Shown here: piece by piece, positions 1,450 through 22,594 of the stretch
How the letters are laid out: every line of letters starts with the position of its first letter
Numbering within the stretch: the stretch's first letter is position 1
Virus record (IMG/VR): IMGVR_UViG_3300034093_000123
Span: 1 to 22,594 of that record
Source: a virus
Direction: 5' to 3' (one strand)
DNA length: 22,594 nucleotides
Notes under the pieces: model-generated
Databases searched by the model: none
What the model was told of the DNA's origin: nothing
The model's input: only the letters and a program-made list of their open reading frames with translations
Translations under genes and position numbers: made by a program

Positions 1450-2549
1450 TAGCCACCCTGCTTATAATTCTCCAAGAGTTTATCGAAGAACTCAGTACCC
1501 TTAGCCTGTACGACATGTTTAGGAATTACGTACTCACCTTCGTGAGCCTTGATCACAACAGGCTGGTTCTCTGGAACCTTAGGAACTGGGCCACCACCCT
1601 TCATGGATGGTATCGGACCTTGCGGTTGCCCGCCGCCTTGCATAGTTTTACCTACTACAACCAGCACAAACAGAAGTCCTTGGTCATATTGTTCGCTCAA
1701 ATCTTGTTCAGTTGCAAGCCCCTGTTGGATAGCCATCTTACGAAGTTGTGGATACATATCAGGATTTTGCAGTGCAACAGTAGCCATTTGCACCATCATG
1801 GTGAGTTCTTGCGGTGTCATTTCACCTGATTGCATAGCCTGTTGTATAACTTGTTGAATCTGCTGCACTTTGTCTGGATGTGCCTGCACAAACTTCTGGG
1901 CTTCGCCGTCAAGCTGTTCTGAGCTTATAGGACGTTGCGCCGCACCGGGAGCAGCAAGACCGGGACCAGCAGAGGGCTGACTCATAGGCATCTGACCTTG
2001 AGGCATACCACCCATACCGATCTGACCGCCCATTGCATAGCTGGGGATAGCAGTTTGGTTAGTGTTAACGCTACTACCAATTCCGCCAAAACCGGGAGGC
2101 TGCATACCTGCTGTCTGAGGTGCCTGTGTAGCACCGGACATACCCAAGAGGCTTGCCAACGCAGGAGGAATGTCAAGGGATGTAGTCCCTTGACTCTGTG
2201 GCATCTGTGCCATTGGAGGTAGGTACGGAATCCCTACTTCAGGTGTAGTAGGACGTGAAGATTCAAACTGCATTGGCATTGGTTGCGCCTGCTGGGCTTG
2301 ATTAGAAGTAGAACCCTGAGGCTGGGCTTGATTAGAAGTAGAACCCTGAGGCTGGGCAAAACGCCCCGGCACAAAAAGTCGGTCAAATGTACTCACACCT
2401 GTTGGGGCGGGTTCCTGTGGTTGGGCAAAACGCTGGAACCCCATAAGTCGGTCAAATGTACTCACACCTGTCGGGGTTGGGGCGGGTGCCTGAGCCGGAG
2501 GGTTCATCCCAAAGAGGTTATTAAGTGTCTTCACACCATAATTAGCCAT
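1449..2549 (-). CDS. Pro/Gln/Gly-rich virion-associated protein with N-terminal 23-residue repeats
   Basis: This 366-residue protein has four visible regions. Residues 5-73 are three tandem 23-residue repeats starting GVKTLNNLFG, GVSTFDRLMG and GVSTFDRLFV. Residues 69-88 hold two copies of GSTSNQAQPQ or its start. Residues 90-207 are disordered, rich in Met, Pro, Gln and Gly. Residues 208-304 look helical, with LQNPDMYPQLRKMA and a hydrophobic GLLFVLVVVG (291-300). The C-terminus (331-363) contains IKAHEGEYVIPKHVVQAKG and EFFDKLLENY, a block I recognise from phage virion or tape-measure-like proteins of unknown function. The start follows GAGGAG with a 7-base gap. Location between the nozzle and gp13-like genes suggests a tail or ejection-apparatus component. 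Function is inferred from context only. Confidence 0.72.
   Translation of the reverse strand: MANYGVKTLNNLFGMNPPAQAPAPTPTGVSTFDRLMGFQRFAQPQEPAPTGVSTFDRLFVPGRFAQPQGSTSNQAQPQGSTSNQAQQAQPMPMQFESSRPTTPEVGIPYLPPMAQMPQSQGTTSLDIPPALASLLGMSGATQAPQTAGMQPPGFGGIGSSVNTNQTAIPSYAMGGQIGMGGMPQGQMPMSQPSAGPGLAAPGAAQRPISSEQLDGEAQKFVQAHPDKVQQIQQVIQQAMQSGEMTPQELTMMVQMATVALQNPDMYPQLRKMAIQQGLATEQDLSEQYDQGLLFVLVVVGKTMQGGGQPQGPIPSMKGGGPVPKVPENQPVVIKAHEGEYVIPKHVVQAKGTEFFDKLLENYKQGG
2291..2357 (-). repeat. Perfect 30-bp tandem repeat inside a coding region
   Basis: Bases 2291-2320 and 2321-2350 are identical, and the first seven bases recur at 2351-2357. The repeat encodes GSTSNQAQPQ in frame and directly follows the 69-bp repeats. 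Perfect identity suggests recent slippage or duplication. Confidence 0.93.
2331..2537 (-). repeat. Three tandem 69-bp (23-codon) coding repeats
   Basis: Codons 5-27, 28-50 and 51-73 of the 366-residue gene are in-register repeats of 69 bases. The second and third copies are closest: a 27-base run is identical between 2376-2402 and 2445-2471, and an 11-base run between 2354-2364 and 2423-2433, both offset by exactly 69. The first copy is diverged (GVKTLNNLFG) but holds the same spacing. The consensus starts G-V-x-T-[LF]-[ND]-x-L-[FM]. Confidence 0.85.
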
Positions 2550-7494: not shown

Positions 7495-7827
7495 TTAGAC
7501 AATGCTTCCATAATCTTCGTTAGCACCAATGACATCAAGGATATTTTGCACTGTAACGCGCATAGCGAAACGTGCCCCCTGTGCAAAGCCATTAGTAGCC
7601 GTATCTTCCTGACCGCGCACGATAGTCATTCCATCACCGGAGCGGGCAGTAACTTTGACGATCTCATAAGAACCATCGGTATTCTCTAAGGTCGCATAGA
7701 AATAATCCCCGGCTGTCATTGTGGGGAATGTAGCACCTTGACCGGCAGCAAGCGTAATCCCCGTATCTGATGCGGAGATTGAAGCAGCTAGAACACCGGC
7801 GGCATTATTTTTTAGTTTGAGTGCCAT
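7495..7827 (-). CDS. Small beta-rich structural protein, paralogue of the upstream gene (copy 2)
   Basis: This 110-residue protein aligns along nearly its whole length with the gene at 7836-8162. Shared positions include M-A-x-x-L-x-NNA, SDT, AGxGAxFP, EIxKxTxRxGD, VRxQExTA and TVxNI. The pattern is known from N-terminal segments of phage tail fibers and small virion proteins, with short beta strands and Gly turns. No catalytic motif is visible. The start is ATG with GAGG upstream. Position after the two adaptor-like genes and before lysis genes suggests a tail accessory or fiber-attachment role. Function is inferred. Confidence 0.72.
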   Translation of the reverse strand: MALKLKNNAAGVLAASISASDTGITLAAGQGATFPTMTAGDYFYATLENTDGSYEIVKVTARSGDGMTIVRGQEDTATNGFAQGARFAMRVTVQNILDVIGANEDYGSIV

Positions 7828-7835
7828 AACCTACC

Positions 7836-8162
7836 TCACAAAGCCAAAACTTCAGTGTCGCCGATAAGGCCAACAATGTTAGCAACAGTAATACGAAGGT
7901 CTACCTTACTACCAATGGGGAATGGCAAGGCAGCTGTACCCTCCTGCGCACGAACAACGGTTAGAGTATCACCGGTACGGGTAGTGCACTTCATAATCTC
8001 AAACGTGTTCTCAGTTGTGATGACTGTTACGTTAAAGAAGTTACCGGATGACAGCGCAGGGAACAACGCACCGTCACCTGCCTTAACTACAAGTGTAGTA
8101 TCAGATGTGCCAACTGCTATCGCTATCGTAGACTGTGCGTTATTAGTAAGCTGGGTTGCCAT
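7836..8162 (-). CDS. Small beta-rich structural protein, paralogue of the downstream gene (copy 1)
   Basis: The 108-residue product contains NNAQSTIAIAVGTSDTTL (7-24), AGDGALFPALSSGNFF (28-43), EIMKCTTRTGDTLTVVRAQE (55-74) and RITVANIVGLIGD (89-101). It is clearly homologous to the next gene, which starts eight bases after its stop. The start ATG follows AAGGTG. Head-to-tail duplicates like this often form hetero-oligomeric rings or attach different fibers. That is a general expectation, not something shown here. Confidence 0.72.
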   Translation of the reverse strand: MATQLTNNAQSTIAIAVGTSDTTLVVKAGDGALFPALSSGNFFNVTVITTENTFEIMKCTTRTGDTLTVVRAQEGTAALPFPIGSKVDLRITVANIVGLIGDTEVLAL

Positions 8163-10164: not shown

Positions 10165-11223
10165 TTACCCCACACGTTCAATACACAAGATAGCTGATGG
10201 GACAGCAGGACATACAAACGGAGATGCCTGTGCTGCTGTGTAGTCTAATGTTACAGCTGCGTTTGATACTGCAAAGTTAACTTCGGTATAATCACCCGCT
10301 GCAAGATCAAGCATAACTGTGACTTCCGGTAGCACAACTCCACCGTCAGCAGCTTTAATAACTGCAACTTTGGAAGCTGAATTGGTGATATCTGCACCGT
10401 TTTTAGTAAACCAAAATATAGCAGTGTGATCAGCTGCACTGGAGTTAGCAAACTGTAGGCTAACTGTAACGCTATACACACCTGCATTTGCCACAGTTAC
10501 ATGTGAACTTGATGCAATGCTAACATTAGTATTAAAGGTTTCAGCATTATTAAACGTAATAGTTGTAGCTGTATTTGCAGTTGCAGTTTGATCCTGTGTA
10601 GAGTAAAACTGACCGTATGCTTTATCAGTGATAACACCCATTAGTATGGAGCCAGTTGTAATATTAACCTTATTAATATTTACTGAACCGCTACCTTGAC
10701 CGGCAAGATTAAGATCAACATTAACATTTGCACCTGCGGCAGTGATGTTATTATCTGTTATAACAAGTGCAGTGTTTACATTTGAAGTATTGAAATAGCT
10801 GGACTCAATCAGGCTGATACCGGTGAACGATCCTGTAAAGACAACACCAGAAACTGTGCCGCCTGTTATAGCAACAGCGTTTGCGGCTTGAGTAGACATG
10901 CTACCAAGGCCAAGGTTCATGCGTGCATCAGGTGCAGTAGAAGCCCCCGTACCACCATCAGCAATAGCAAGGTCACTAATACCCGTAAGCGTGCCGCTCG
11001 TGACGTTGATATTAGAGATATTAACTGTGCCACTAAGTGCAGAGATGCTATTGCCGGAGAGGCGAATGTTACCAACCGAGACCGAACTAGTGCCAATCTT
11101 CAATGCTGTAGCAGTACCAAGGCCACTATACAGGATGCGTTCCAACGAGGCGGGACCACCGTCGATGTGCATAATCTGGTTGTAAGTATCTTTGATCTTA
11201 TAGCCAGTAAGGTTGGTGGTCAC
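10165..11223 (-). CDS. Tail fiber protein with C1q-like C-terminal domain
   Basis: The 352-residue protein starts at GTG 11223, five bases after a strong AGGAGG. The N-terminal part (GYKIKDTYNQIMHIDGGP, 7-24) resembles attachment segments of phage structural proteins. Residues 50-135 form a repetitive Ser/Gly/Thr shaft, with ADGGTGAS (88-95) and LGSMSTQAANAVAITGGT (106-123), motifs shared by many fibers. Residues about 203-351 look like a C1q or TNF-type jelly roll: YGQFYSTQDQTA, SSHVTVANAGVYSVTVSLQF, and AGDYTEVNFAVSN. That domain probably trimerises and contacts the receptor. It is the last of three large adhesion genes in a row. Head fiber rather than tail fiber cannot be excluded. Confidence 0.78.
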   Translation of the reverse strand: MTTNLTGYKIKDTYNQIMHIDGGPASLERILYSGLGTATALKIGTSSVSVGNIRLSGNSISALSGTVNISNINVTSGTLTGISDLAIADGGTGASTAPDARMNLGLGSMSTQAANAVAITGGTVSGVVFTGSFTGISLIESSYFNTSNVNTALVITDNNITAAGANVNVDLNLAGQGSGSVNINKVNITTGSILMGVITDKAYGQFYSTQDQTATANTATTITFNNAETFNTNVSIASSSHVTVANAGVYSVTVSLQFANSSAADHTAIFWFTKNGADITNSASKVAVIKAADGGVVLPEVTVMLDLAAGDYTEVNFAVSNAAVTLDYTAAQASPFVCPAVPSAILCIERVG

Positions 11224-11258: not shown

Positions 11259-14200
11259 TTACGTAAAGAAATGGAAGTTCGCAGTTGGACGGGTCAAGAA
11301 CCAATTCACATTACCCCCGCTATCATTACAACTTGCACCAGCAAACCAGATAGCACCGCCGCTAGCATACGAGTTCTTCAAGGCTATGAAGTCAATCCAA
11401 GTCTTAACCCCTGATGGATCAGACAAGAAGTGATACCCACCAGTTGTAACAGAACTATCAATCGTGCAGTCACGCTGGGCATAAATTGCTGTTCCTGCGG
11501 GCAAGCCCCCCGTCAGGATACCCGGTGTAATGGTATAGCTACCCGTACCACGGTTAGTACCTGTCCCCGTCTGCCCAACGATACGAGTACCGGGGGCAAT
11601 GTTAGGATGTCCATAGATAACAGCACCGGGCCAAACTTCGCCAGATGTTACTGTTATGCCAAGGTTTGTACCGGTAGCGGCAAGTGTTGTAGTGACTGTA
11701 CCGGTAAACGACGTACCCGATCCGATGTTACCGTACTGCAGATCAAACATACCTGTGACAGTGCCAGCAGTAAACAACATTGCTGTTGGGTACGAAACAG
11801 AAGAACGGATGCTTTTAAATGTGCTATTGCCGGTAAACGTAAGAACGCTATGTGATTGAAGCAGCATCTCAGGATACAAGGTTGCGTTCCGCATACTGAT
11901 GGCTGTACTCAATGGGGTTGGCTGGGATATGCTTAGCCGTATTTGGTTTCCAATAGCCCCGGCACAAGCGGAAAGACCTGTACCAGTTACCGCCCCGGAA
12001 ATAATTTCAGTTACATAGCCGAGGAACTTACCTGTATCATACGGCCCACCGGTTATCCCCGGAGTTGTTACTGGTGAAGCGGGGCACGCATATACGTACT
12101 GCCCAACTGACAAAAAGCTAGTCGTAGGGGTAGTGACAGTAGTAAGAGTTAAAATGTCATTACTAATTGTGCCACTAAATGAGCCGCCCCCGCCTTCAAA
12201 TGTTCTATTACCCGCACCTATAGCTGTGTTCTCTGCGTTAAGGCAGATTGTTCCATTGGGGGGTGTGTCAAACCCGGAAAGTTTGCAAGAGAAATTCTTA
12301 CCGCTTACGGAGAAGGCAACGGCTGAAGCGTTAGATGTCCCACCGCTAGTGGCTGTTAGTATACCGCCATCAAGAAGAAGCGCACGTGTGCTATTGCCTG
12401 TTGATGTAAATGTCCGACACGTTATATTTTTTGCATCAGCATCTATAGTACCTTGGGTAAGGATAAGCGCACCGTTAGTACCGTCCATGTTCAAGTCTTT
12501 TAGCAACTGCCACGTCTTACCCGCGCTAAAAGTAAACGGCCTGTTGATAGCTTTTCCTACATCAACGTAGCCAGTTCCTGAACCATAAAGCGTGATAATA
12601 CCTGTACCATCGAAGGTACCAACAGTACTTGGTATAATTAAATCGCCGTATACAAATGGTGCGGATGTTGCAAGAAGTGACCCTGTGAACCCAGTGAAAT
12701 CAAGCGTCTTTACTCTGGCGACCCCACTTATTGTCAGTGGATATGACCCAGATAGGATATAGAAATTAAGTGCGGTGGCTTCAAGTGCCGACCCCGGTCC
12801 GATTGTAGTTGCAGTAGCAGTTGGATTATTAATTTCAATGCGCGATGTACCAGTCACAGCATCAAGTACTGACATAGATACAACGGTACCGGAGCCAGTA
12901 AGGACAATCTTGCCGCCCGTTCCGAATGTCAGCTTGCGTACAAGGATTGAAACGGATGTTAGTGATTGTGCAGTAAAAGCATGTGTGCTTACATTAAAGA
13001 TACCGGATGTAAGGTCAAATGCCCTTAAACATGTTACTGGGCTAGTAAGAGTCAGTGTTGAAGTACCTGCTGTACTTATTGTTATAGGACGATCTATGGT
13101 TACAGCACTAGAAAATGTACGAGATACAGTAGTCTGTGAACCAAAAAGCATAACACCGGTAGCTGCAGAGATTACAGTGCCTGCAGCAAATACAACATCC
13201 CCGAAAAACGTAAAGGTATTTGTACCACCAGCTATGGTTACGTTTGCCCCTGTTGTATTAAAGTCTCTAAACGCCGACCCTGTTGCAATAGACAACGTAT
13301 AGGTACCCCCAGTAAAATAGAAATTATACACGGAGCCTTCTGCTAAACTTGTAGAATCTATTGATTTGGTACCAGTGTCGGTCGTATTAACAGTTACGTT
13401 TGACGTGCCAGTATACGAAGATACAGATGACCCAGCACTAGTAAAGATAGCTTGACCTGCATTGGGTGCAGTAATATAAAATTTACCAGAAGTACCAAAC
13501 GCAACATGTTTGCCCGCCGCGCCAGTAATTGCTAAACTTTGTGCGGTAAGTGTATAGTTTGTAATATCTAATGTACCGGAGTTAATAGTAAATAGTGCAT
13601 TTATATTTGGTGCTGCTACTGCTGTTGAGAATATAGCCGTAGCTGTAGTACTACCGCCATTGATTCTAACTGGGCGATTAAATGTAACACCACTTAGTTC
13701 ATGAGTACGTGTGGTAGATGGCAGTGTATTAAATGTTATCTGGCCCGTACCTGTACCGATAGTCATACCGGAAGTTAAAGTAAGCGTGCCGCCTATGCTA
13801 AGTAAAGATGCGTCACCAACAATGCTTCCCGTAAACCCACCAGTAAATGTAATGTCGCCATAGGACGAATTTGTATTACCTAACGTAAGTGCATACGATC
13901 CACCGGTAACTTTGATATTAACATTGTTTGTAAGTGTTGCAGTATTCACAGCAATACTACGCGCAGTTGCTCCCGCACCAGTTAGATTGAAGAAGTTATT
14001 GGTACCTGATGTTGTAAATGCTGAACCAGTTGTCTGAAATACTGCACCAGCTGTACCGGTGATATTAAACGCACTTGTACCGGATGCTCCAAACGCAATG
14101 GTCCCATTAGATATAAAATGTGATACTGTAATTGTGTATCCATTAAGGGTTATCGTACCGGCGGCGTTAGTCCATGAACCTGAAGCGGTAATATTATTAG

Positions 14201-14912
14201 TTATGTTAGCAGTACTTGATGTTACGTTGGCAGTAATACTTGCATTACCAAACCCATGTGAACCGGAGTTTAGTGCCAGTGTAGTAGCATTAATTGTTAT
14301 ATTACTAGACGTACCGCTAACACTAGAGCTACCTATCGTAATTGTCGTGCCAGCTGTAAGATTAACAACAGCTGCAGTAGACGCATAGGTGAATGTTGTT
14401 AGCGTACTCATAGTGGTTGCAGAATTAAGCGTCAGTGTACCACTACTACCGGCAGGTATTGTATACGAATTACCGGCAGTACCAGTTATGGAACCAGTGG
14501 GAGCGCACGTTACGTTAGCTCCAGTGGACTGGAAAGAAATCCCTCCCGCAGCTCCGAATACAATGCTTGCACCATTAATTGTAAACGTACCGCTAGATGC
14601 GCTAGTAGTTGCTGTAACTAACCCGGTAAAATTAACAGTACCGGTAGGAGCTAGTGTAAAATTTCCACCGTTATAAGTTGTAGTACCGCCAATGTTAAAT
14701 CCAGCACCGCCGCTAAGAGTAACATTTGATGGATTACTAATAGTAAGTGCGAGTATGTTGATGGTTGCAGCACTTAAAGTAATGGTAGCGGTAGTACCGG
14801 GACTAAATACAACACTATCGGTATTGACACCGGGTGCGCCAGACGGGGACCAGTTAGTACTAGTTGTCCACAACCCATCACCTGCTGCGCCAGTCCATGT
14901 CTTAACAGCCAT
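11259..14912 (-). CDS. Giant Thr/Ser/Gly-rich beta-solenoid virion protein or adhesin
   Basis: Starting at ATG 14912 (AGGAAG seven bases upstream, two bases after the previous stop) the product has 1217 residues. It is rich in Thr, Ser, Gly, Ala and Ile and poor in charged residues. The N-terminus (WTGAAGDGLWTTSTNW, then GVNTDSVVFSPGT) resembles the G-W-NW-D-V-F start of autotransporter-type beta-helical adhesins. Three modules of about 190 residues are visible, each with G[GS][ST]YxL[TS] (338, 536, 722) and later [IF][ND]RP (411, 606, 789). Residues 1068-1136 match a Gly/Thr-rich domain found in virion proteins (GVWPG-type turn, IAPGTRIVGQTGTGTNRGTG). The end (SGGAIWFAGASCNDSGGN, 1183-1200) is a known fiber-like terminus. 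A receptor-binding or decoration role is inferred. Confidence 0.75.
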   Translation of the reverse strand: MAVKTWTGAAGDGLWTTSTNWSPSGAPGVNTDSVVFSPGTTATITLSAATINILALTISNPSNVTLSGGAGFNIGGTTTYNGGNFTLAPTGTVNFTGLVTATTSASSGTFTINGASIVFGAAGGISFQSTGANVTCAPTGSITGTAGNSYTIPAGSSGTLTLNSATTMSTLTTFTYASTAAVVNLTAGTTITIGSSSVSGTSSNITINATTLALNSGSHGFGNASITANVTSSTANITNNITASGSWTNAAGTITLNGYTITVSHFISNGTIAFGASGTSAFNITGTAGAVFQTTGSAFTTSGTNNFFNLTGAGATARSIAVNTATLTNNVNIKVTGGSYALTLGNTNSSYGDITFTGGFTGSIVGDASLLSIGGTLTLTSGMTIGTGTGQITFNTLPSTTRTHELSGVTFNRPVRINGGSTTATAIFSTAVAAPNINALFTINSGTLDITNYTLTAQSLAITGAAGKHVAFGTSGKFYITAPNAGQAIFTSAGSSVSSYTGTSNVTVNTTDTGTKSIDSTSLAEGSVYNFYFTGGTYTLSIATGSAFRDFNTTGANVTIAGGTNTFTFFGDVVFAAGTVISAATGVMLFGSQTTVSRTFSSAVTIDRPITISTAGTSTLTLTSPVTCLRAFDLTSGIFNVSTHAFTAQSLTSVSILVRKLTFGTGGKIVLTGSGTVVSMSVLDAVTGTSRIEINNPTATATTIGPGSALEATALNFYILSGSYPLTISGVARVKTLDFTGFTGSLLATSAPFVYGDLIIPSTVGTFDGTGIITLYGSGTGYVDVGKAINRPFTFSAGKTWQLLKDLNMDGTNGALILTQGTIDADAKNITCRTFTSTGNSTRALLLDGGILTATSGGTSNASAVAFSVSGKNFSCKLSGFDTPPNGTICLNAENTAIGAGNRTFEGGGGSFSGTISNDILTLTTVTTPTTSFLSVGQYVYACPASPVTTPGITGGPYDTGKFLGYVTEIISGAVTGTGLSACAGAIGNQIRLSISQPTPLSTAISMRNATLYPEMLLQSHSVLTFTGNSTFKSIRSSVSYPTAMLFTAGTVTGMFDLQYGNIGSGTSFTGTVTTTLAATGTNLGITVTSGEVWPGAVIYGHPNIAPGTRIVGQTGTGTNRGTGSYTITPGILTGGLPAGTAIYAQRDCTIDSSVTTGGYHFLSDPSGVKTWIDFIALKNSYASGGAIWFAGASCNDSGGNVNWFLTRPTANFHFFT

Positions 14913-14914
14913 GA

Positions 14915-17023
14915 TTATGCTTCCTGAGCAATAGCAACAAAGTCCCAACGACCAGTATTAGATGCAGCGGCGGCATTATAAAATGCACCTAAGTATAGGG
15001 TCTTGCCTGCTGTAGTAAGAGTCTGTGGTGACATACCTACCCAGCGGTAGCTTTTAGCTAATCCTGAAGCAAATGAAAAGGTTCTGCTAGTACCGTTATC
15101 GAGGATACGAAACAAAATCTTCTGCCCGTCTACTGGCGTACCGGCATCAATAGAAATCGTGCATGGTGCGCCGCTTGTGGTAGCTAATCCAGTAATAATA
15201 TACACGTCATAGTCGTCAGAGTTTACTGAAACTGACGCGGGCGCAGTGAGAGTAGCAACACGTGGTACAATCTTTTTATTGGTCAGGGTCTGCGTAGCGG
15301 TCGTACCAACAAGTGCCCCAGCTGGAGCAGTAAGTGAAGTAGCCCATGCTGTACCAGACGACACAGCAATACCGGCACCGGGGTAGCTAAATGGACTTGC
15401 GCCCCATACAGGTACCCCACTCGTAACTTTAAGGAACGTGCCATCAGCACCAACGCCAAGTTTAGAAAGTGTATTCGTTGCAGAAGCATACAGGATATCG
15501 CCTGTTGTATATGACCCAAACCCCGTACCACCGCGAACATTGTCAAGAATACCGGATGTAATCTGTGACGTGCCGATGCTAATAGTTGTATTTGTTACAG
15601 CAGTAACTTGCCCTTTAGTATTAAGCGTAACTACCGGCACCGCCGATGCACTTCCATATGCCCCGGCAGAAAGTCCAGTTACATCCTTAATACTAAAAAC
15701 ACTACTAGATAGAGCAAGTGTCGATCCATCAGCTGCGTAAGTGATAGGCGCAGCAAACTTTGTAAATGTTATGCCAGTTGTACCGAATACAATGCTACCA
15801 ACTTGCTGAATCCAAGAGGTACTTGTGAGGGTCGAACCCCCTTCAACAAAGAAATAACTACCGGCACCAAGTTGAGTAGAGAGATTTCCTGCTGTATTAG
15901 CATCAGTAGCACGCGTAAGTTTCCATGCTGTACCGCCATCACCGGCAATAGTTACTGTATATACACCGTTTTCTTTCGGTAGAGCTTGGTCTTTAATAAG
16001 TACCCGTTGCCCTACAGCTACGGCTTGTGAATCTATAGTCAAAGCACCGTTACTTGATGCCAAGAGAAACGCACCTACCCCCAGTGTACCAGCTGCTCCA
16101 TCAGTATACGTGGATGCGGGGAGCGGTCCTGTAGATGCGTACTGCACTGCAGTATGAAAACTAAGCCCAGAGGCCAGCCCGTCAACATAAGATTTATTGA
16201 CAATATGATTAGCGGTAGTTGGGGCCGTAGTGATTGAACCGCTTGTCAAAGCAACAGACGTGAGCGTAGCTGTACCACCTACGATGGCAACTGCACCTGC
16301 GTCTTGGGTAGACATAGTGCCAAGGCCAGTGACATCCGTGTTAGGGACACTAGCTACTGTGGTCATGGCAGACGTGCCATTACCTTTTACGTAACCGGTC
16401 AGTGTGGTTGCACCGGTACCGCCACGTGCTACGTTAAGAGTCTGCAGTTCACCAAGAACGCCATTGTTATTAAAGAGTAAATAAGTGTTTGTACCACCGG
16501 CAATCGGGGTAGTACCTGTAGTCATAGACCCAATAGGGAACCAAGTGGTCCCGTTGTGGCCTTCAAAATTATTAGCAGTTAAGCTAAAACGGAATAGGCC
16601 AGCCGCCCCTGTAGGACGATCACCATCATAACCGGACGGCATACGGATAGCGTCAGTAGTGCGCAAATCAACAGACACAGCGGGAGTATCAGTGCCAACG
16701 CCAACCTTGCCGTCAGCCTTCACAACAAATGGTGTGGTGTCTGGGTTAACAGAGTCTTCGACAGTAATAGCATTACCGGAGCCAGTCTGTGTAACACGAA
16801 GGGCGGCATTAGAGGAGCTTAAAACAACATTAAGTGAGCCTGTAAGAGTACCGCCAGTGAGGAGCAAAAAGTACGAGCCAAGCGAACTACTCATCGCAAG
16901 CGATAATTCAGAACGTGAAATACGTTTGCTAATATCTGTGCTGGTATCAAAGATGAGGAACTGGTCGTCGTTAGCCGTTGACGCTCCAGTAATTGCATCA
17001 AGTTGCGGGATACGCTTAGCCAT
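14915..17023 (-). CDS. Long tail fiber protein
   Basis: I choose ATG 17023, which has AGGAG seven bases upstream; an in-frame GTG just before it is less likely. The 702-residue chain begins with a probable virion-anchor region (KRIPQLDAITGASTANDDQF, 3-22). It continues with a beta shaft holding ARGGTGATTLTG (199-210) and VRGGTGFGSYTTGD (496-509), classic fiber motifs. Residues about 279-425 form a known phage domain (YVDGLASGLSFHTAVQYAST, later RVLIKDQALPKENGVYTV). The C-terminus (580-702: LTNKKIVPR, DGQKILFRILDNG, GKTLYLGAFYN) is a common fiber knob. It should recognise the host surface. LGTMSTQDAGAVAI (234-247) also appears in the 352-residue fiber. Confidence 0.85.
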   Translation of the reverse strand: MAKRIPQLDAITGASTANDDQFLIFDTSTDISKRISRSELSLAMSSSLGSYFLLLTGGTLTGSLNVVLSSSNAALRVTQTGSGNAITVEDSVNPDTTPFVVKADGKVGVGTDTPAVSVDLRTTDAIRMPSGYDGDRPTGAAGLFRFSLTANNFEGHNGTTWFPIGSMTTGTTPIAGGTNTYLLFNNNGVLGELQTLNVARGGTGATTLTGYVKGNGTSAMTTVASVPNTDVTGLGTMSTQDAGAVAIVGGTATLTSVALTSGSITTAPTTANHIVNKSYVDGLASGLSFHTAVQYASTGPLPASTYTDGAAGTLGVGAFLLASSNGALTIDSQAVAVGQRVLIKDQALPKENGVYTVTIAGDGGTAWKLTRATDANTAGNLSTQLGAGSYFFVEGGSTLTSTSWIQQVGSIVFGTTGITFTKFAAPITYAADGSTLALSSSVFSIKDVTGLSAGAYGSASAVPVVTLNTKGQVTAVTNTTISIGTSQITSGILDNVRGGTGFGSYTTGDILYASATNTLSKLGVGADGTFLKVTSGVPVWGASPFSYPGAGIAVSSGTAWATSLTAPAGALVGTTATQTLTNKKIVPRVATLTAPASVSVNSDDYDVYIITGLATTSGAPCTISIDAGTPVDGQKILFRILDNGTSRTFSFASGLAKSYRWVGMSPQTLTTAGKTLYLGAFYNAAAASNTGRWDFVAIAQEA

Positions 17024-17044
17024 CACAGACTCCTATATGAGAAG

Positions 17045-17068
17045 AAGCAGGGGTGTTACCCCCTGCTT
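17045..17068 (-). terminator. 9-bp stem-loop after the 74-residue gene, terminator-like
   Basis: On the minus strand the RNA would fold as AAGCAGGGG, a 6-base loop, then CCCCTGCTT. The stem pairs 17045-17053 with 17060-17068. It lies four bases after the stop of the 74-residue gene and before the fiber ribosome binding site. The trailing sequence is CTTCTTCTC-like, pyrimidine-rich but without a true U-run, so it may be an attenuator, a processing site or an mRNA-stabilising element rather than a full terminator. Confidence 0.6.
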
Positions 17069-17072
17069 TAGA

Positions 17073-17297
17073 TTAGGTAGCTGAAACAGCCGTACCGCTA
17101 ACAAGATTAATCCAGTCGGTACCATTACTAACAGCGACAGTAGCAGAACCTGCGTTACCATTTGAGACGTAAACAATCTCTCTAGTATGCGCAGAAGCTG
17201 GATAAGCAGAAAGTTGCGCAACGGTAAAACCAACAAGGCCAAGATGAGCATTATTGATTACAGGGGCATCAAGTGCAACGCCAGTATAGAGTCCCAT
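17073..17297 (-). CDS. 74-residue small probable structural protein
   Basis: The gene starts at ATG 17297 with an AGGAGAG site very close upstream and ends at TAG/TAA just before a hairpin. The product (MGLYTGVALDAPVINNAHLG at the start, EIVYVSNGNAGSATVAVSNG at 40-59, DWINLVSG near the end) is neutral and beta-rich. The second half resembles short repeats found in fiber-like virion proteins where a Trp-containing strand ends the unit. It has no signal peptide or catalytic motif. It is enclosed by two stem-loops and follows the capsid genes, so a head decoration or head-fiber role is plausible. Its separate regulation is the notable point. Confidence 0.68.
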   Translation of the reverse strand: MGLYTGVALDAPVINNAHLGLVGFTVAQLSAYPASAHTREIVYVSNGNAGSATVAVSNGTDWINLVSGTAVSAT

Positions 17298-17303
17298 TTC
17301 TCT

Positions 17304-17317
17304 CTCCTATAAAGGAG
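17304..17317 (-). promoter_or_regulatory. Small hairpin that could hide the ribosome binding site of the 74-residue gene
   Basis: On the minus strand CTCCT, a 4-base TTAT loop and AGGAG form a perfect 5-bp inverted repeat. The AGGAG arm is the Shine-Dalgarno site of the gene starting at 17297. The hairpin abuts a more stable one at 17317-17336 and shares its border base. Pairing would lower translation unless opened by a ribosome or another factor. Confidence 0.5.
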
Positions 17318-17336
17318 GTGGGGCCGAAGCCCCACC
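17317..17336 (-). terminator. Perfect 8-bp UUCG-tetraloop stem-loop after the decoration gene
   Basis: The minus-strand RNA folds as GGTGGGGC, TTCG, GCCCCACC, with the extra-stable C(UUCG)G loop. It starts two bases after the TAA of the 157-residue gene. It is followed by TCCTTTATAGG, which has only a short U-containing stretch. It could be a partial terminator or a 3' stabiliser for the abundant capsid messages. T7 has a terminator in the comparable place after its capsid gene. Confidence 0.75.
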
Positions 17337-17338
17337 AA

Positions 17339-17812
17339 TTAGGTTACGTTAGGGATCGAACCGAGGTTGGCACCCATGTCGATATAGGCAATCGACACCT
17401 TAACTTTAGCCACATCAATGCTGTTGGTGTTGATCAACATTACAACATTGGTATCAGCAGTCAGGTAAGTTGCCGTTGGCGTAGCTGCAGCAGTAACACC
17501 AGCTGTACCGTTCAGGTCGAAGTCGTTAGCGAACAGTGCAGCAGTACCGGTAATACCAAGGTCAATAGTACCGGCAGCACCTTCAGCCTTCACAAGGGTA
17601 GCACTACCGCCGAGGATCAAAGAACCCTTTGGCAAGGTAGCGATAACCAGAGTGTCGGTAGCAGCCAGTGCAGCAGCACCAGCAGCCGAACGAGCAGCAG
17701 CAATCTTAGCGAAATCCAGAGTGGTTTCGTAAGTTGCAAGGCGGGTTGTGTAACCAGCGACAAATGCTGCAGAGCCTTTGTTAAAGCCCAAGGAGTCAGT
17801 ATAAGCAGTCAT
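17339..17812 (-). CDS. Probable head decoration or minor capsid protein
   Basis: I start at ATG 17812, preceded by AAGGAG with a 7-8 base gap and located 11 bases after the capsid stop. The frame is open further upstream but only with weak starts inside the capsid gene. The 157-residue product is Ala/Thr-rich and low in charge. It has an N-terminal part (MTAYTDSLGFNKGSAAFVAG), an Ala-rich stretch (AAARSAAGAAALAATDTLVI), and a beta-like C-terminal half with NTNSIDVAKVKVSIAYIDMG. Genes of this size directly after the major capsid gene commonly encode decoration or stabilising proteins. No family motif decides this, so the role rests on position and composition. Confidence 0.72.
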   Translation of the reverse strand: MTAYTDSLGFNKGSAAFVAGYTTRLATYETTLDFAKIAAARSAAGAAALAATDTLVIATLPKGSLILGGSATLVKAEGAAGTIDLGITGTAALFANDFDLNGTAGVTAAATPTATYLTADTNVVMLINTNSIDVAKVKVSIAYIDMGANLGSIPNVT

Positions 17813-17823
17813 AATAGTTCTCC

Positions 17824-18753
17824 TTAAGCGAAGGTGCAAACAGCTTGTGCGAGGGCTTCAGGCTTCACAACCTTATAACCATACACTTGCAGACCACGGA
17901 CGATATCACCGAAGGTGGAGGTGGAGCGGATAGTTTCCATCTCAGTCATCTGAGAAGCAAACGTAAAGCCCATCTTGGTACCTGCGACGAGGTTGAACTT
18001 GCCACCGCTATCGACCTTCAGGTTGTGGCTGGTATACAGCGTAAACCGATCAATCATGCCGAGGCGACCGTTGCGGATTGGGGAAGCCGAATCACCAGTG
18101 ATCGAGGCATCCTTCAGTTCCGACTTCTTGATCAAGCCAGCCATGCGGGCTGGGATGACGAGGAAGCGACCCTGCTCTGGGCAGTTAGCTTCGTCAAGAA
18201 CAGTACCCATATCGACGATCAAGTCGATGACAGGGGTGGTCGAGCCAACGCCGTCCTTGGTAACAGTCAAGGGCGAACCAGTGGTACCGAGGTTGTAGTT
18301 GCCAGAGATACGACCAGCGGCGGTACCTTTGTTCAGTGCAGAAATTTCTGGCAGCATGTCGGTGAGGACGCGCTGGTCGATCTTAATCTTCATCTGCTCA
18401 GAGGCATCCTTGGACCAAGCATCCATCAGCTTGATGTCCGACTGGACTTTATCAATGTCGTCTTCAACGCAAGCGAAGTACTCGCCCTTGTCGATCAACA
18501 ACTGCAGCTTCGGCTTATCGGGGTTTTCCACGACGAGGTTCTGACCCTTGACATAATCACGGATGGTGATGTTTGGCTGGGTACGGATGTTGACAGTATC
18601 ACCTTGGCTACGAATTTCACCTTCGTAGTCAGTGTTGGAGATAGCAGCCAGCACGGTTGCATCGTAGAAGTTCTCAATCAGTTTGCCGGACCAAATCTCA
18701 GGAATGAAGTTCCCGGAGTAATTTGGGCGACCAGCGGCGGTAGGGTATGCCAT
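17824..18753 (-). CDS. Major capsid protein (HK97-fold type)
   Basis: The 309-residue protein forms the icosahedral shell. The N-terminus (SGNFIPEIWSGKLIENFYDA, 13-32) leads to GDTVNIRTQPNITIRDYVKG (51-70), which resembles the E-loop and P-domain start of podovirus coat proteins. DIDKVQSDIKLMDAW (99-113) opens a long helix. VLDEANCPEQGRFLVIPARM (185-204) is the typical coat protein block before the A-domain. The start ATG has GGAG seven bases upstream and lies 12 bases after the scaffold stop. The order portal - scaffold - capsid confirms the call. Base use looks more G+C-rich and regular than in neighbouring fibers, as expected for a highly expressed gene. Confidence 0.92.
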   Translation of the reverse strand: MAYPTAAGRPNYSGNFIPEIWSGKLIENFYDATVLAAISNTDYEGEIRSQGDTVNIRTQPNITIRDYVKGQNLVVENPDKPKLQLLIDKGEYFACVEDDIDKVQSDIKLMDAWSKDASEQMKIKIDQRVLTDMLPEISALNKGTAAGRISGNYNLGTTGSPLTVTKDGVGSTTPVIDLIVDMGTVLDEANCPEQGRFLVIPARMAGLIKKSELKDASITGDSASPIRNGRLGMIDRFTLYTSHNLKVDSGGKFNLVAGTKMGFTFASQMTEMETIRSTSTFGDIVRGLQVYGYKVVKPEALAQAVCTFA

Positions 18754-18765
18754 TTGTAGTCTCCA

Positions 18766-19767
18766 TTAACCATTTGCGACGATGCGATTTTCCCGCTGAG
18801 CGGAGAAGATATCGCGTTCAATACGGTCGCGTTCAGCTTCCTTACCTGAGTAAACACCTTTACGTACATCAGCAAAGAACTTAGCAATGTCCTGTGGCGA
18901 ATACGTTTTAGATTCTCCTGTTGGTGCGCCGCCTCCGCGACTACGACCGGGAGCTACCTGTTTATCAAGTTCGGACGCTGGTGCGTGCCGAGGTGGTTGA
19001 GCAACAGCTTGACCGGATAGATGCTGCCAAGTCGCAAAAAACGTAGCTACGCGCCTAGAGTCCAGATTACGCTGAGCATCTTCGAGGTAGGTCTGACGAG
19101 TAGAACCAGTCAATGGGTCCACACTCATGAGCCACCCTTGGAAGTTTTGATCCGCATTGATATCGCGCCAATCAGGAACGAGTGCGGTCAAGTCCGACCA
19201 GAAGACTTGCTCAGCAGATACTGCCTGTCTATGTGCGACCTGCTCGACACGAGGAACAATACTAGTCTGCATCTGGCGAACCATTTGCTCCAGTTCAGCG
19301 ACACGGCGCATAGCTGCCGAGTTTTCTTCCTTCGTTACGCGACGCATAACGTCAATAGAGTCGCCGTATTCTTCAACGTCTTTATCAGTCACAAGTTTAT
19401 CAAACGTCTGCGGGACTTGTGAGTTTGCCGCTTGGTTCGACATGTTAGACAGCAACTGCTCTAGTTGCGTTAGTCTATTGTTCAACTGCTGATTCTCCAT
19501 CCGAAGACGGCCTGTATCAGCGTTGTACATGCCTTGCAGAGTACGATATCTCTGGTCAGCCGTTTCGTTTGACCCGGTGCCAGATTGCTTTTGCTCGTTA
19601 AGCACTGGCTCAGTTGCAAGTATGTCTACACTGTCGGCTTGCGTTTCCTGTTCAGACTTATCACCCGCTTCGTCTACCGTATTAGTAGAGTTATCGTCGG
19701 TGTTAAGTTCTTCATACAGCTTAGCTACGGCCTCAGACTGTCTACGAACTTGCTCTGGTACGGTCAT
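18766..19767 (-). CDS. Capsid assembly scaffolding protein
   Basis: The 333-residue protein guides coat assembly and should be lost or cleaved before DNA packaging. The N-terminus (residues 1-70) is acidic, rich in Asp, Glu, Thr and Ser. RYRTLQGMYNADTGRLRMEN (73-92) starts a coiled coil that runs to about 112; this motif recurs in phage scaffolds. A second helical region includes RRVAELEQMVRQMQ. VPDWRDINADQNFQGWL and DSRRVATFFATWQHL follow, also typical. The C-terminal part (SPQDIAKFFADVRKGVYSGK, then basic helices) probably binds the coat. The start ATG follows AAGGAG by eight bases. Its place between the portal and capsid genes is diagnostic. Confidence 0.88.
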   Translation of the reverse strand: MTVPEQVRRQSEAVAKLYEELNTDDNSTNTVDEAGDKSEQETQADSVDILATEPVLNEQKQSGTGSNETADQRYRTLQGMYNADTGRLRMENQQLNNRLTQLEQLLSNMSNQAANSQVPQTFDKLVTDKDVEEYGDSIDVMRRVTKEENSAAMRRVAELEQMVRQMQTSIVPRVEQVAHRQAVSAEQVFWSDLTALVPDWRDINADQNFQGWLMSVDPLTGSTRQTYLEDAQRNLDSRRVATFFATWQHLSGQAVAQPPRHAPASELDKQVAPGRSRGGGAPTGESKTYSPQDIAKFFADVRKGVYSGKEAERDRIERDIFSAQRENRIVANG

Positions 19768-19796
19768 ATTGAACGCTCCTTCTCGGTATGCGTTGG

Positions 19797-20033
19797 TTAG
19801 GATTGGCTACCCCGGTGGGGTTGTGCCTTTGAATCAATACTATCTTGTAATAGTTTATGTAGTTCTGTCAAGACCTGACAGCGACCTTGTGCAAGTTGAA
19901 CAGCAGAACTTGAAACATTTGGTAGCTGTCGAAGCTCGTGATTGCTCCAGTTAGATAGCCACTGGAGAAACTCTGGATTGTGTTTTGCTACATTAGTGAT
20001 TGCAGCAAACTCTCTTTCATCTGGGCGAATCAT
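19797..20033 (-). CDS. 78-residue small protein between portal and scaffold, unknown
   Basis: The ATG overlaps the portal stop as ATGA (20033-20030), with no strong SD, so translation is probably coupled to the portal. The product is mostly helical: FAAITNVAKHNPEFLQWLSN (9-28), then SSAVQLAQGRCQVLTELHKL (42-61). The tail is short and basic. It lacks membrane segments and known motifs. Small helical proteins at this site may help assemble the portal or scaffold, but I cannot assign a function. A 29-base gap with a good ribosome site for the scaffold follows. Confidence 0.7.
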   Translation of the reverse strand: MIRPDEREFAAITNVAKHNPEFLQWLSNWSNHELRQLPNVSSSAVQLAQGRCQVLTELHKLLQDSIDSKAQPHRGSQS

Positions 20034-22096
20034 GCCGCGCCTGTCTGTTTATTGCTTACAAGGTTCTGCCCGCCAGCAGGATTACCAGCCTGATCTGTCA
20101 TTGCTGCAGCAGGCTGCTGTTGCGGTTGTTGTGGCTGTTGCTGCGCCTGTTGCTGTTGCGCAAGTTGTTTAACCTGTGTTGTGTACGCCAGCTTGTCACG
20201 GCTAGGCACGATCTCATCAACAGGCATCTGCAGACCCTTAGCAACTTCACGGAGGATAGCCGCACGACCGTCGGTACCGATGATGCTCATGTCGATCTCG
20301 TTACCCGTAGCATTGAGGAACTCGACACGGCGCACGTTAACAGTCTCACGAACAGCAAGGTTAGTTGCGCCACGTGGCAAGACCTGCAGATCACCTTTGA
20401 TTTCTTCGTCAGCATCATAGCGCATGTTGTACACAAACTGGCGGTACACAATAGGTTTCGTGATATCATTGTCGATGTGCATGACTACCTGACGGATACC
20501 CTTACCTGCCGCACCCATAAGCATGGACAAACCAGAGGACGTACGGCCCGCGCCCTGTACATTCGTGTCGCCATAGATATAAGCAGGGATACCTGAGTGA
20601 TCGTCAGCCATGCGGCTGAACTTCTCATACACACCCATCAATGTAGTTGAGTTATCATTGGGCTGGTTGAACCGCACAGCAGGAGCAGACGATCCGAGAG
20701 GGTCATTAAGAACCTGCCAAATCTTCCATGGGTGCATCTGCGTGATATCCTCGTTAGGAGGAATACGCTCAAGGTTAACTTCGACCTGCGGACCTGATGC
20801 AATACCCATGTTATTAACCAGCGCACGGGCTGCAGCGTTACAAATACTCTGCAAATCCTCAATGATTTCAGGGATAGAACGACCCCAAAACGCACCGGGA
20901 GACTTAATAAACGAGGTTTTTGCGTAGGGTTTTTCACCCAGAGGATCGTAATTCAGGATGGCTTTGATGATATAATTACCCACCAACCACACGTTTACGT
21001 CATACTCACGGGCATCATCAGGGATTTCTTCCTCGGTCAAACCCCACTCAATCAGCATTTTACCGCTGACTTTACCCCAGAACTCAAGCGCATCGAACAT
21101 TTCCGTAGGCCGCATCTCGGTACGGTACTTACGTTCTTCCTGCTCACGCTCCATGAAGGTGGTATCAGTAACCCAAGACTGGCTAGGGCCAATGCTCAAT
21201 ACCTTACGGATAGCCTGATCGTCATAACCCGGCGCACCAATAAGATCAGCCAATGCCATACGTGTCAGCTTGTGATGCTCAAAGAGATAGCCGTCCTGAA
21301 CACGAGTGATGCCCGGCTCAGGGTAAATGTTAAACGGGTTAACGCGCTCAAACTCAGGTGCAAGCCGTTCGGCTGGCTCAACCATTGTCTTACCGTCAGG
21401 ACCACGTGTGTACACGAGGTGACGTTGACGGCGCACTACTGGACCTTTAACGAAAGCGCAAGGGAACGTAACGAGATCAGTGATGAACTCATTGAACGCA
21501 TCAGCCCAACCACCTTGAGCGAACTGATCCTCGATCTTCAGCTTCATCTTGTCAGCACGATTAGACGCAGCTTGCAGCAGACGGAAGCGATACTCCTGCC
21601 CCACCATTTCACGCAATTCCAGCATCTGCGACTTGGACGGTGCCTCACCTGTAGCCTGAATTATCTTCATGGCTTCTTCAGCAAACGCATCCTGCAAATC
21701 AGCAGCCTGTTCCGGCGAAAGATCAGGGATTGGGGTAGCCTGCAAATCCCAAGGGGGAGTACCTGTGTCAAGCAGAATATCACGCAGCCAGCTCTCAGCT
21801 GCGCGACACTTGATCTCAGTCAGCATCATAAAAACTTCAGAGCCGCCCTGCTGGCGAATAGCTTTGAGCTTGTCTGCTTCATACTCACCATTGCGCTGCC
21901 GCATGGCCCGAAGCATAATGTATTCAATAGGTTGTTTAGAAATACGTGCAGCATCCCAGCACTCTTTAAGGTGGGAAGCAAGCCCAAGCATTACAGAGTC
22001 TTGCTGACGCGCCTCAAGCTCCGCATCCATGCGGTTCTTTTCATCACGGTCAAGTTGCTCGTTGCTTACTACCCGCAAGATGCTAAGCCCAGCCAT
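20030..22096 (-). CDS. Portal protein (head-tail connector)
   Basis: I start at ATG 22096, overlapping the spike stop as TAATG and preceded by GAGGG; an in-frame TTG 30 bases upstream is less likely. The 688-residue protein forms the ring through which DNA is packaged and ejected. Portal-type blocks include DQFAQGGWADAFNEFITDLV (190-209), SPGAFWGRSIPEIIEDLQ (399-416), and IPAYIYGDTNVQGAGRTSSG (503-522), followed by SMLMGAAGKGIRQVV. The last segment resembles the stem region of large podovirus portals. Residues 644-663 are nearly all Gln/Pro (plus-strand bases about 20108-20168), followed by a disordered tail. Length is nearer P22 gp1 (725) than T7 gp8 (536). Confidence 0.92.
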   Translation of the reverse strand: MAGLSILRVVSNEQLDRDEKNRMDAELEARQQDSVMLGLASHLKECWDAARISKQPIEYIMLRAMRQRNGEYEADKLKAIRQQGGSEVFMMLTEIKCRAAESWLRDILLDTGTPPWDLQATPIPDLSPEQAADLQDAFAEEAMKIIQATGEAPSKSQMLELREMVGQEYRFRLLQAASNRADKMKLKIEDQFAQGGWADAFNEFITDLVTFPCAFVKGPVVRRQRHLVYTRGPDGKTMVEPAERLAPEFERVNPFNIYPEPGITRVQDGYLFEHHKLTRMALADLIGAPGYDDQAIRKVLSIGPSQSWVTDTTFMEREQEERKYRTEMRPTEMFDALEFWGKVSGKMLIEWGLTEEEIPDDAREYDVNVWLVGNYIIKAILNYDPLGEKPYAKTSFIKSPGAFWGRSIPEIIEDLQSICNAAARALVNNMGIASGPQVEVNLERIPPNEDITQMHPWKIWQVLNDPLGSSAPAVRFNQPNDNSTTLMGVYEKFSRMADDHSGIPAYIYGDTNVQGAGRTSSGLSMLMGAAGKGIRQVVMHIDNDITKPIVYRQFVYNMRYDADEEIKGDLQVLPRGATNLAVRETVNVRRVEFLNATGNEIDMSIIGTDGRAAILREVAKGLQMPVDEIVPSRDKLAYTTQVKQLAQQQQAQQQPQQPQQQPAAAMTDQAGNPAGGQNLVSNKQTGAA

Positions 22097-22594
22097 TAGT
22101 GCACGTCCCTCATAATCTTCTGCCAACTAAAGCCATCGGACTTAAGCAAAGCCCACCACCCTGCTGCGTTAGGGCAAATCTGTGCTGTATTAGCTGATAC
22201 TGAAGTGTACTCAGCTACGTTTGAAGCAGATGAATTTATATAATTAGCTGTATATGTCTTAATAAGAAGTTCGCGCCCTGCCCATTTGGTAGCATCAGGA
22301 AGGGTAAGTGTAACTGTACCAGCATAGTTTGCGTAGATATAATAATCACTTTCGCCAACGGTATAAGACGCTGCAGCTAGGGCAACCGCAAGTTTTTCAT
22401 AACGATCAAGCCGCGGGGCTGTATTATTAACAGTTACACTGTATGGTCTTGTTACAAACCCGACGATAGAGTTGCTATCAACTATGATTCTATCTGTGTA
22501 ATCAAGGGCAACACCAAATGTACCGCCACGGATAATGTTATTGCTAATCACACCGTCAGAGATACGACCGCTTGAGTTACCAAGCAAGTAAACA
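22096..22594 (-). CDS. Tail spike or beta-helix fiber, C-terminal part; 5' end outside the window
   Basis: The frame is open to the right edge, so only the last ~165 residues are seen. The first visible part (SSGRISDGVISNNIIRGGTF) has the repeated N-x-I and G-V patterns of right-handed beta-helices such as those in pectate-lyase-like phage spikes. The last ~100 residues form a separate domain: YEKLAVALAAASYTVGESDY, then GTVTLTLPDATKWAGRELLI, ending in WQKIMRDVH. Such domains end many spikes and fibers. The protein probably binds or cleaves surface polysaccharide, but no catalytic residues are in view. Its stop overlaps the portal start, which places an adhesion gene directly before the head module. 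Confidence 0.75.
   Translation of the reverse strand, partial: VYLLGNSSGRISDGVISNNIIRGGTFGVALDYTDRIIVDSNSIVGFVTRPYSVTVNNTAPRLDRYEKLAVALAAASYTVGESDYYIYANYAGTVTLTLPDATKWAGRELLIKTYTANYINSSASNVAEYTSVSANTAQICPNAAGWWALLKSDGFSWQKIMRDVH

What the first reader, a model, noticed from the sequence alone, without database searches (positions are those of the whole stretch)
11259..14912. 1217-residue virion protein made of three ~190-residue beta modules
I see three modules marked by G[GS][ST]YxL[TS] at 338, 536 and 722 and [IF][ND]RP at 411, 606 and 789, each followed by segments such as LDITNYTLTAQSL or FNVSTHAFTAQSL. The N-terminus resembles bacterial autotransporter adhesins. A protein this long and nearly uncharged is unusual in a short-tailed phage and could be a long appendage or head fiber, or have been acquired from a bacterial adhesin.
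Basis: partly seen in the sequence, partly recalled or inferred. Interest (0 to 1): 0.55.

Follow-up and report, generated by a model that had tools for sequence, protein, structure and literature searches.

The report
Adhesin-like fibre in short-tailed phage
A short-tailed phage carries, in a slot where its relatives usually have nothing or a different fibre gene, a 1217-residue protein that starts with a beta-helix end piece also found in bacterial surface adhesins, so it is probably a swappable cell-binding rod on the virus particle.

Summary
The protein is real: minus strand, 14912-11259, 1217 aa, 6.5% D/E/K/R. It holds three related modules of about 190 aa (326-520, 523-708, 709-890), each found by a profile of the other two. 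Its first 60 residues belong to a widespread module without a family model of its own (TW-x-G...NW...P...D), found at the start of 89 ORFs on viral contigs and in 119 stretches of bacterial genomes (both scans capped), among them autotransporters and the adhesin RemA, with a weak link to animal amnionless. A model of residues 1-250 (pLDDT 72.5) is all-beta and superposes on the VacA passenger (Z 16.0, 218 residues); the modules could not be modelled. The gene follows a fibre-like gene in an operon with SU10-type portal and adaptor. In 61 related loci this slot is short in 52, holds another fibre-like gene in 8, other ORFs in 1, and this protein in none. Best reading: a swappable beta-helical adhesin or fibre of the virion. 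Virion presence, oligomeric state and receptor are untested. New variant of a known kind.

The parts
11259..14912 (-). whole gene, 1217 aa (called P1217 here)
   Evidence: two bases lie between the stop of the upstream gene and the ATG
14730..14912 (-). residues 1-61: N-terminal NW cap (MAVKTWTG...NWS...P...D)
   Evidence: model pLDDT 86-92 in blocks of ten
13938..14729 (-). residues 62-325: T/S/G/N-rich start of the beta-helix; residues 101-300 hold no D, E, K or R
   Evidence: the model covers only up to residue 250 and falls to pLDDT 49-69 beyond residue 120
13353..13937 (-). module A, residues 326-520
12789..13346 (-). module B, residues 523-708
12243..12788 (-). module C, residues 709-890
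   Evidence: weakest copy, 18.4 bits when left out
11898..12215 (-). residues 900-1005: resembles a stretch of another accessory ORF in relative L007
   Evidence: z 4.4, 0 of 1000 shuffles
11493..11750 (-). residues 1055-1140: second stretch resembling the same part of L007
   Evidence: z 5.0, 1 of 1000 shuffles; the two P1217 stretches do not match each other (z 0.7)
11262..11492 (-). residues 1141-1217: C-terminal segment GGAIWFAG...DSGGNVNW, by eye like parts of L191 and L153
   Evidence: by eye; no statistic
14915..17026 (-). g703, upstream fibre-like gene sharing the slot
   Evidence: (phrog_30390, phrog_3030, both of unknown function); 'fibre-like' is my reading of its repeats and position
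10165..11223 (-). g352, conserved gene that closes the slot
   Evidence: (weak tail fibre match, E 9.8e-5)

Best explanation
P1217 is an accessory adhesin or fibre of the virion. Its N-terminal 60 residues cap a right-handed parallel beta-helix of the kind used by secreted bacterial adhesins; the helix goes on through a nearly uncharged stretch and probably three related blocks of about 190 residues, and ends in small modules near the C-terminus that may do the binding. It is probably made from the same message as the fibre-like g703 and the conserved g352 and attached at the tail or neck of an SU10-type short-tailed particle, where it holds the particle to the cell surface before or beside the main receptor step. 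Phages of this clade gain, lose and swap what sits in this slot, which would change what they stick to. Shown: ORF, three modules, membership of the NW N-terminal family, predicted beta-helix for residues 1-250, slot variability. Inferred: the beta-helix continues through the modules, virion location, adhesion, point of attachment, one-chain helix. At 20-25 residues per turn and 4.8 angstrom per turn (general knowledge) about 890 residues would make a rod of roughly 17-21 nm.
For: Modules. NW cap: phage-family profile built without P1217 gives it 43.1 bits against at most 8.4 in 1000 shuffles; bacterial-only profile 28.9 against at most 10.1; P27 and D32 are conserved at 90% or more in 77 N-termini although neither was part of the search pattern. 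Profile matches to solved adhesins: RemA 8gl6_D E 1.7e-10, Mfa5 6to1_A E 0.056. Fold: model of 1-250 with 24 relatives, pLDDT 72.5, pTM 0.75; VacA 6ody_A Z 16.0, rmsd 3.0 over 218 residues; tapirin 6n2c_A Z 13.8 over 212. Carriers in bacteria include secreted surface proteins: PF03797 in L267, PATR in L258 and L301, TPS in L297. Context: SU10_portal E 1.5e-12, SU10_adaptor E 5.3e-18, major head protein E 5.9e-57; start codon right behind the g703 stop. Slot: 61 loci, 52 short, 8 with g703-like genes, 1 with other ORFs, and no P1217 match in any of the 84 loci then held; relative L007 (head protein 90% identical) has other ORFs straight after its g703. The longest start adds only 12 codons before the motif-bearing ATG, so there is no room for a signal peptide. 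Neighbours of NW genes on other viral contigs match portal, adaptor, baseplate wedge, sheath stabiliser and tail fibre families.
Against: No direct virion evidence exists. The model of residues 1-971 without an alignment is poor (pLDDT 44), so the fold of the three modules is untested, and the 1-250 model is confident only to about residue 100. Foldseek found nothing at E 0.001 or better; the Z values come from a second look at only 14 chains, and repeat folds score high against each other. With the residues used for selection left out, the phage NW profile's support for P1217 is thin (6.2 bits against at most 5.6 in 2000 shuffles; best domain -0.2). P1217 itself matches no Pfam, PHROG or NCBIfam model at a meaningful level. 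An N-terminus that caps a helix is an odd place for a virion anchor, and no known anchor was recognised. IMG/VR contigs may include some non-viral DNA.
Confidence: 0.6

Rival explanations
1. A classical trimeric tail fibre or tailspike, perhaps an enzyme that cuts surface sugars, whose N-terminus docks on the tail and whose beta-helix carries an active groove.
For: Place in the structural operon next to g703 and g352, and predicted beta-helix. Slot proteins of L066 carry tail-fibre-type N-termini.
Against: No glycosidase, lyase or esterase model hit. Residues 101-300 have no D or E. The NW cap is at home in secreted proteins; autotransporter passengers are recalled as one-chain helices. Oligomeric state was not tested.
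Confidence: 0.18
2. A head fibre or head decoration protein fixed to the capsid.
For: The slot lies just behind the major head protein and g166; a gene elsewhere in the window weakly matches a head fibre family (2553-2900, phrog_4366, E 1.9e-5).
Against: 52 of 61 relatives have no large protein there; no head-fibre match for P1217; shared slot with fibre-like g703.
Confidence: 0.12
3. A cell-surface adhesin of the infected or lysogenic host, not part of the particle.
For: Several bacterial carriers of the NW module are surface or secreted proteins.
Against: No signal peptide space before the motif, no autotransporter barrel, PEP-CTERM or other sorting domain hit at E 1; gene embedded in the virion operon.
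Confidence: 0.05

Closest known systems
Autotransporter passengers (VacA; passengers with PATR repeats)
   Same: Predicted fold of residues 1-250 superposes on VacA; the NW module occurs in proteins with PF03797 or PATR.
   Different: No signal peptide, no beta-barrel, sits in a phage operon.
RemA and Mfa5, Bacteroidota surface proteins (roles recalled; Mfa5 as fimbrial tip protein also in a search listing)
   Same: Same NW module by profile, strong for RemA, weak for Mfa5.
   Different: The module is internal there (892-1003; 647-735); P1217 as a whole has no PDB sequence match.
Amnionless (animal vitamin B12 receptor subunit)
   Same: The NW segment aligns with the start of its beta-helix 1; 28 of 77 N-termini hit the Pfam model at E 0.1 or better, best 2.1e-5; passages of PMC6283879 seen: two right-handed beta-helices, Asn35 buried in the apex of the first, likeness to phage tailspikes noted by its authors.
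   Different: The matches whose bit scores I saw lie below the curated cut-off and P1217 is not among the hits; superposition is weak (Z 4.1, 73 residues).
SU10-type podovirus long tail fibre (gp12/gp13)
   Same: SU10-type portal and adaptor in the window.
   Different: SU10 long fibres are trimers whose gp12 N-termini dock on the adaptor, with a coiled-coil part (passages of PMC9509320); P1217 was not recognised as having such an N-terminus, and its gene lies before the adaptor gene.

Membership tests
Autotransporter (type V secretion) | C-terminal beta-barrel (PF03797) | tested here: not met
   No such match at E 1 or better in P1217
Autotransporter (type V secretion) | N-terminal signal peptide | tested here: not met
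   Motif begins at residue 5; the longest start adds 12 codons, overlapping g703
Autotransporter (type V secretion) | Right-handed beta-helix passenger | tested here: inconclusive
   Model of residues 1-250 superposes on VacA, Z 16.0 over 218; rest of the chain without a usable model
NW-cap N-terminal module (unnamed; defined here) | TW-x-G ... NW ... P ... D at the start of a beta-rich chain | tested here: met
   thin if only the part after NW is scored
Amnionless (PF14828) | Match to the Pfam model | tested here: not met
   P1217 and its first 150 residues do not hit, though 28 of the 77 N-termini do
Phage tail fibre or tailspike | Encoded in the structural operon | tested here: met
Phage tail fibre or tailspike | Present in the virion | not testable with these tools
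   needs mass spectrometry or cryo-EM
Phage tail fibre or tailspike | Trimer | not testable with these tools
   no prediction of complexes at hand
Phage tail fibre or tailspike | Match to a known fibre or spike family | tested here: not met
   no PHROG at E 0.1, no relevant Pfam at E 1, no NCBIfam or PDB sequence match at E 1

The most novel reading that the evidence does not exclude
Residues 1-60 mark a widespread beta-helix cap without a family model of its own, shared by phage particles, secreted bacterial adhesins of several secretion routes and animal amnionless. Phages repeatedly take up such adhesin passengers, drop the secretion parts, and mount them on virions as swappable binding rods, possibly held by the far end because the N-terminus is a closed cap.
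Probability: 0.4. Interest if true: 0.7.

Novelty: new variant of a known kind. Interest (0 to 1): 0.5.

Why it matters
If right, phages and bacteria use the same adhesin building block, and a family of probable virion proteins common on viral contigs is nearly invisible to current annotation: 1 of 77 N-termini matches a PHROG at E 0.01, and none of seven protein queries from P1217 and its relatives found an NW start in 50,697 phage records (no match; six records, matched only at query residues 548-668), within the limits of tblastn with its low-complexity filter. It gives a handle for naming adhesion genes in uncultivated phages and makes a point testable: which end of the rod is fixed to the particle.

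Tried and rejected
Whole-protein searches against Pfam, PHROGs, NCBIfam, PDB sequences and phage records gave nothing useful for P1217; the DUF3290 hit at E 0.2 is taken as noise. Close relatives by peptide patterns in IMG/VR: 14 stretches matched, one confirmed (L001), sharing only the N-terminus. Relatives of the three modules: 92 stretches matched, none confirmed. In 121 bacterial and 94 viral-contig NW ORFs, modules A and B and the segments after C found nothing at E 0.01; module C found a piece of L297 (E 3.5e-6), and the module profile touched L114 only weakly (E 0.11). g352 as query: 12 stretches matched, none confirmed, although g352 is found in 61 of the 84 loci by tblastn. AlphaFold of residues 1-971 alone: not interpretable. 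Compositional sign of recent import: GC3 is 0.333, close to g703 (0.355) and g352 (0.334) though below head genes such as the major head protein (0.635), so it does not single out P1217. A pattern for the C-terminal small module hit nothing, not even P1217 itself, so it was badly made; one search replaced it. Linkage of the g703 C-terminal domain to NW genes (L191, L114) is suggestive only, as this domain is common in phages by recollection. Papers: amnionless with autotransporter gave 0; amnionless with bacteriophage gave 5, of which only PMC6283879 seems to bear on it, by a remark on tailspikes; two wider searches and one on G8, beta-helix, phage and adhesin listed nothing on point by title. 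These cover open-licence PMC papers only.

Rows dropped and limits: of 94 ORFs from the viral pattern scan, five (on L097, L110, L190, L112, L102) were left out as unrelated by eye; among the 89 left, L001 and L140 are the same contig and a few others repeat each other. Identical or short N-termini were removed before alignment (79; 76 plus P1217; 24 plus P1217, chosen for likeness). Slot counts need hits to both g166 and the start of g352; L074 and L080, which hold g703-like genes of 632 and 777 aa, fall outside the 61. The Pfam scan of bacterial carriers used 9 proteins of 119 loci. The PHROG scan of neighbours used 60 of 120 ORFs and its output gives families (25 of 49 shown), not the number of ORFs matched.
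Full report
What is there. The window is a whole virus record of 22,594 bases, probably a fragment of a genome, since related contigs reach 58.8 kb. The genes identified run on the minus strand. In order of transcription: the end of a protein with a weak beta-helix match, portal (SU10_portal, E 1.5e-12), a scaffold by position, major head protein (phrog_267, E 5.9e-57), g166, g74, g703, the protein in question, g352, two small genes, adaptor (SU10_adaptor, E 5.3e-18), and further virion genes including an 877-aa protein (phrog_511, E 3.2e-105) and a muramidase. I take this for an SU10-type short-tailed phage.

The protein. The ORF runs from 14912 to 11259 on the minus strand, 1217 aa. Two bases separate the stop of g703 from its ATG, with AGGAAG seven bases before the ATG, so it is probably translated with g703. 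T, G, S, A and N make up 59% and D, E, K and R 6.5%. The other window proteins computed range from 5.4% (the 74-aa g74) to 38%.

The repeats. Modules A, B and C at 326-520, 523-708 and 709-890 are related beyond composition (z 12.9, 7.5, 4.9; 0 of 300 shuffles each), and each is found by a profile of the other two (44.8, 43.6 and 18.4 bits). Residues 166-325 also gave z 4.1 against A (0 of 300), but the module profiles score everything before 325 and after 890 below zero, so I count three. Identity to B is 28% for A and 22% for C. DNA repeats within the gene are short and poor, so this is not a recent tandem duplication.

The N-terminus. One viral contig found with P1217 as query, L001, shares MAVKTWTG...NW. 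A DNA pattern for MA..TW.G...NW in IMG/VR hit its limit at 119 stretches; 94 in-frame ORFs were read, 89 after five unrelated ones were dropped (L001 and L140 are the same contig). In 77 aligned N-termini, P1217 included, P27 and D32 are conserved at 90% or more though not asked for, so the pattern had found a family. A profile of 79 N-termini, without P1217, gives P1217 43.1 bits; the best of 1000 shuffles gives 8.4. If only the part after NW is used, support is thin (6.2 against at most 5.6 in 2000 shuffles; best domain -0.2). A test independent of the phage selection is a profile made from 114 bacterial segments: 28.9 bits for P1217, best of 1000 shuffles 10.1; it hits 78 of the 94 viral-contig ORFs and no other window protein of the 24 given.

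Where else the module occurs. In the PDB the profile finds RemA (E 1.7e-10), Mfa5 (0.056) and amnionless (0.059), then clearly unrelated chains. A pattern scan of bacterial and archaeal genomes reached its limit at 119 stretches with 121 matches, in ORFs of median length 1149 aa; the titles shown include Bacteroidota, Planctomycetota, Verrucomicrobiota and Alphaproteobacteria. Nine of these proteins were scanned: one has the autotransporter beta-domain, two have PATR passenger repeats, one TPS, one a Hint domain, one a C25 peptidase, one a sub-threshold PEP-CTERM, one only sub-threshold matches (L242) and one nothing (L222). Five have a sub-threshold amnionless match, four of them at the pattern's place and one (L242) at another place, which also resembles the P1217 N-terminus. 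In amnionless this segment lies at the apex of a right-handed beta-helix, where Asn35 is buried (passages of PMC6283879); that Asn35 is the N of NWS follows from the alignment if the chain starts at residue 20. Of the 77 N-termini 28 hit the amnionless model at E 0.1 or better and one hits a PHROG; P1217 itself hits neither.

Fold. Alone, residues 1-971 gave a useless model (pLDDT 44). Residues 1-250 with 24 relatives gave pLDDT 72.5 and pTM 0.75, with 81-92 in the first ten blocks of ten residues and 49-77 after that, and strands throughout. Foldseek found no significant match in PDB or BFVD; amnionless stood fourth in the PDB list at E 6. VIA-align of 14 chains put VacA first (Z 16.0, rmsd 3.0, 218 residues), then tapirin (13.8, 212 residues); LpxD chains, left-handed helices by recollection, fit badly (rmsd 12 or more); amnionless fits over 73 residues at 2.6 (Z 4.1). 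I read this as a right-handed parallel beta-helix. Its extension into the modules is inference.

The slot. None of the 84 loci then held matches P1217 at 1e-5. In the 61 loci with both g166 and the start of g352, the gap is under 1000 bases in 52; nine are larger: eight hold g703-like genes (six of 465-737 aa, L061 188 aa, L064 118 aa) and L066 holds ORFs of 599, 406, 169 and 974 aa, two of which start like the window's tail-fibre-type proteins. The window's gap is 6116 bases. L007, whose head protein is 90% identical, has a 976-aa g703 followed by a 118-aa gene and a different ORF of at least 348 aa where P1217 would be. Part of that ORF resembles P1217 900-1005 (z 4.4, 0 of 1000) and 1055-1140 (z 5.0, 1 of 1000). 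So the place behind g703 looks like a swap site for fibre-like accessory proteins.

Function. A chain with no signal peptide in a virion operon, in a slot for fibre-like genes, starting with an adhesin cap, is most simply a particle-borne adhesin. The lack of acidic residues in 101-300 speaks against a sugar-cutting enzyme there. Some NW genes on other viral contigs have neighbours that match portal, adaptor, maturation protease, baseplate wedge, sheath stabiliser and tail fibre families, so the module is not a peculiarity of this phage. What remains open is the mode of attachment: fibres usually dock by their N-terminus (general knowledge), but here the N-terminus looks like a closed helix end.

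Verdict. The finding is a new variant of a known kind, phage appendages built on a beta-helix, with an unusual adhesin-type cap for which I found no family model of its own in Pfam, PHROGs or (for P1217) NCBIfam.

Noticed in passing
window 22096-22587, minus: C-terminal fragment cut by the contig end; weak Beta_helix match (PF13229, E 0.0086), and it matches small genes behind g166 in several relatives.
   Followed up: no
window 7495-7827 and 7836-8162, minus: Two neighbouring related genes, both matching the phrog_8469 tail fibre N-terminus; both also match the 599- and 974-aa slot proteins of L066.
   Followed up: partly
window 2291-2357: Perfect 30-base tandem repeat, 2.2 copies, inside a 366-aa gene.
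   Followed up: no
L086 and L093: By eye, two NW-type genes next to each other on the same contig.
   Followed up: no
L005: Another contig, 100% identical to window 16298-22594, so the same phage or a close strain was sampled again; the match ends inside g703.
   Followed up: no
L302, L311: NW module in bacterial proteins with a Hint domain and with a C25 peptidase.
   Followed up: no
L191 405-797 and L114 1104-2852: Genes directly before an NW gene carry a stretch like the C-terminal part of g703, as in the window.
   Followed up: partly
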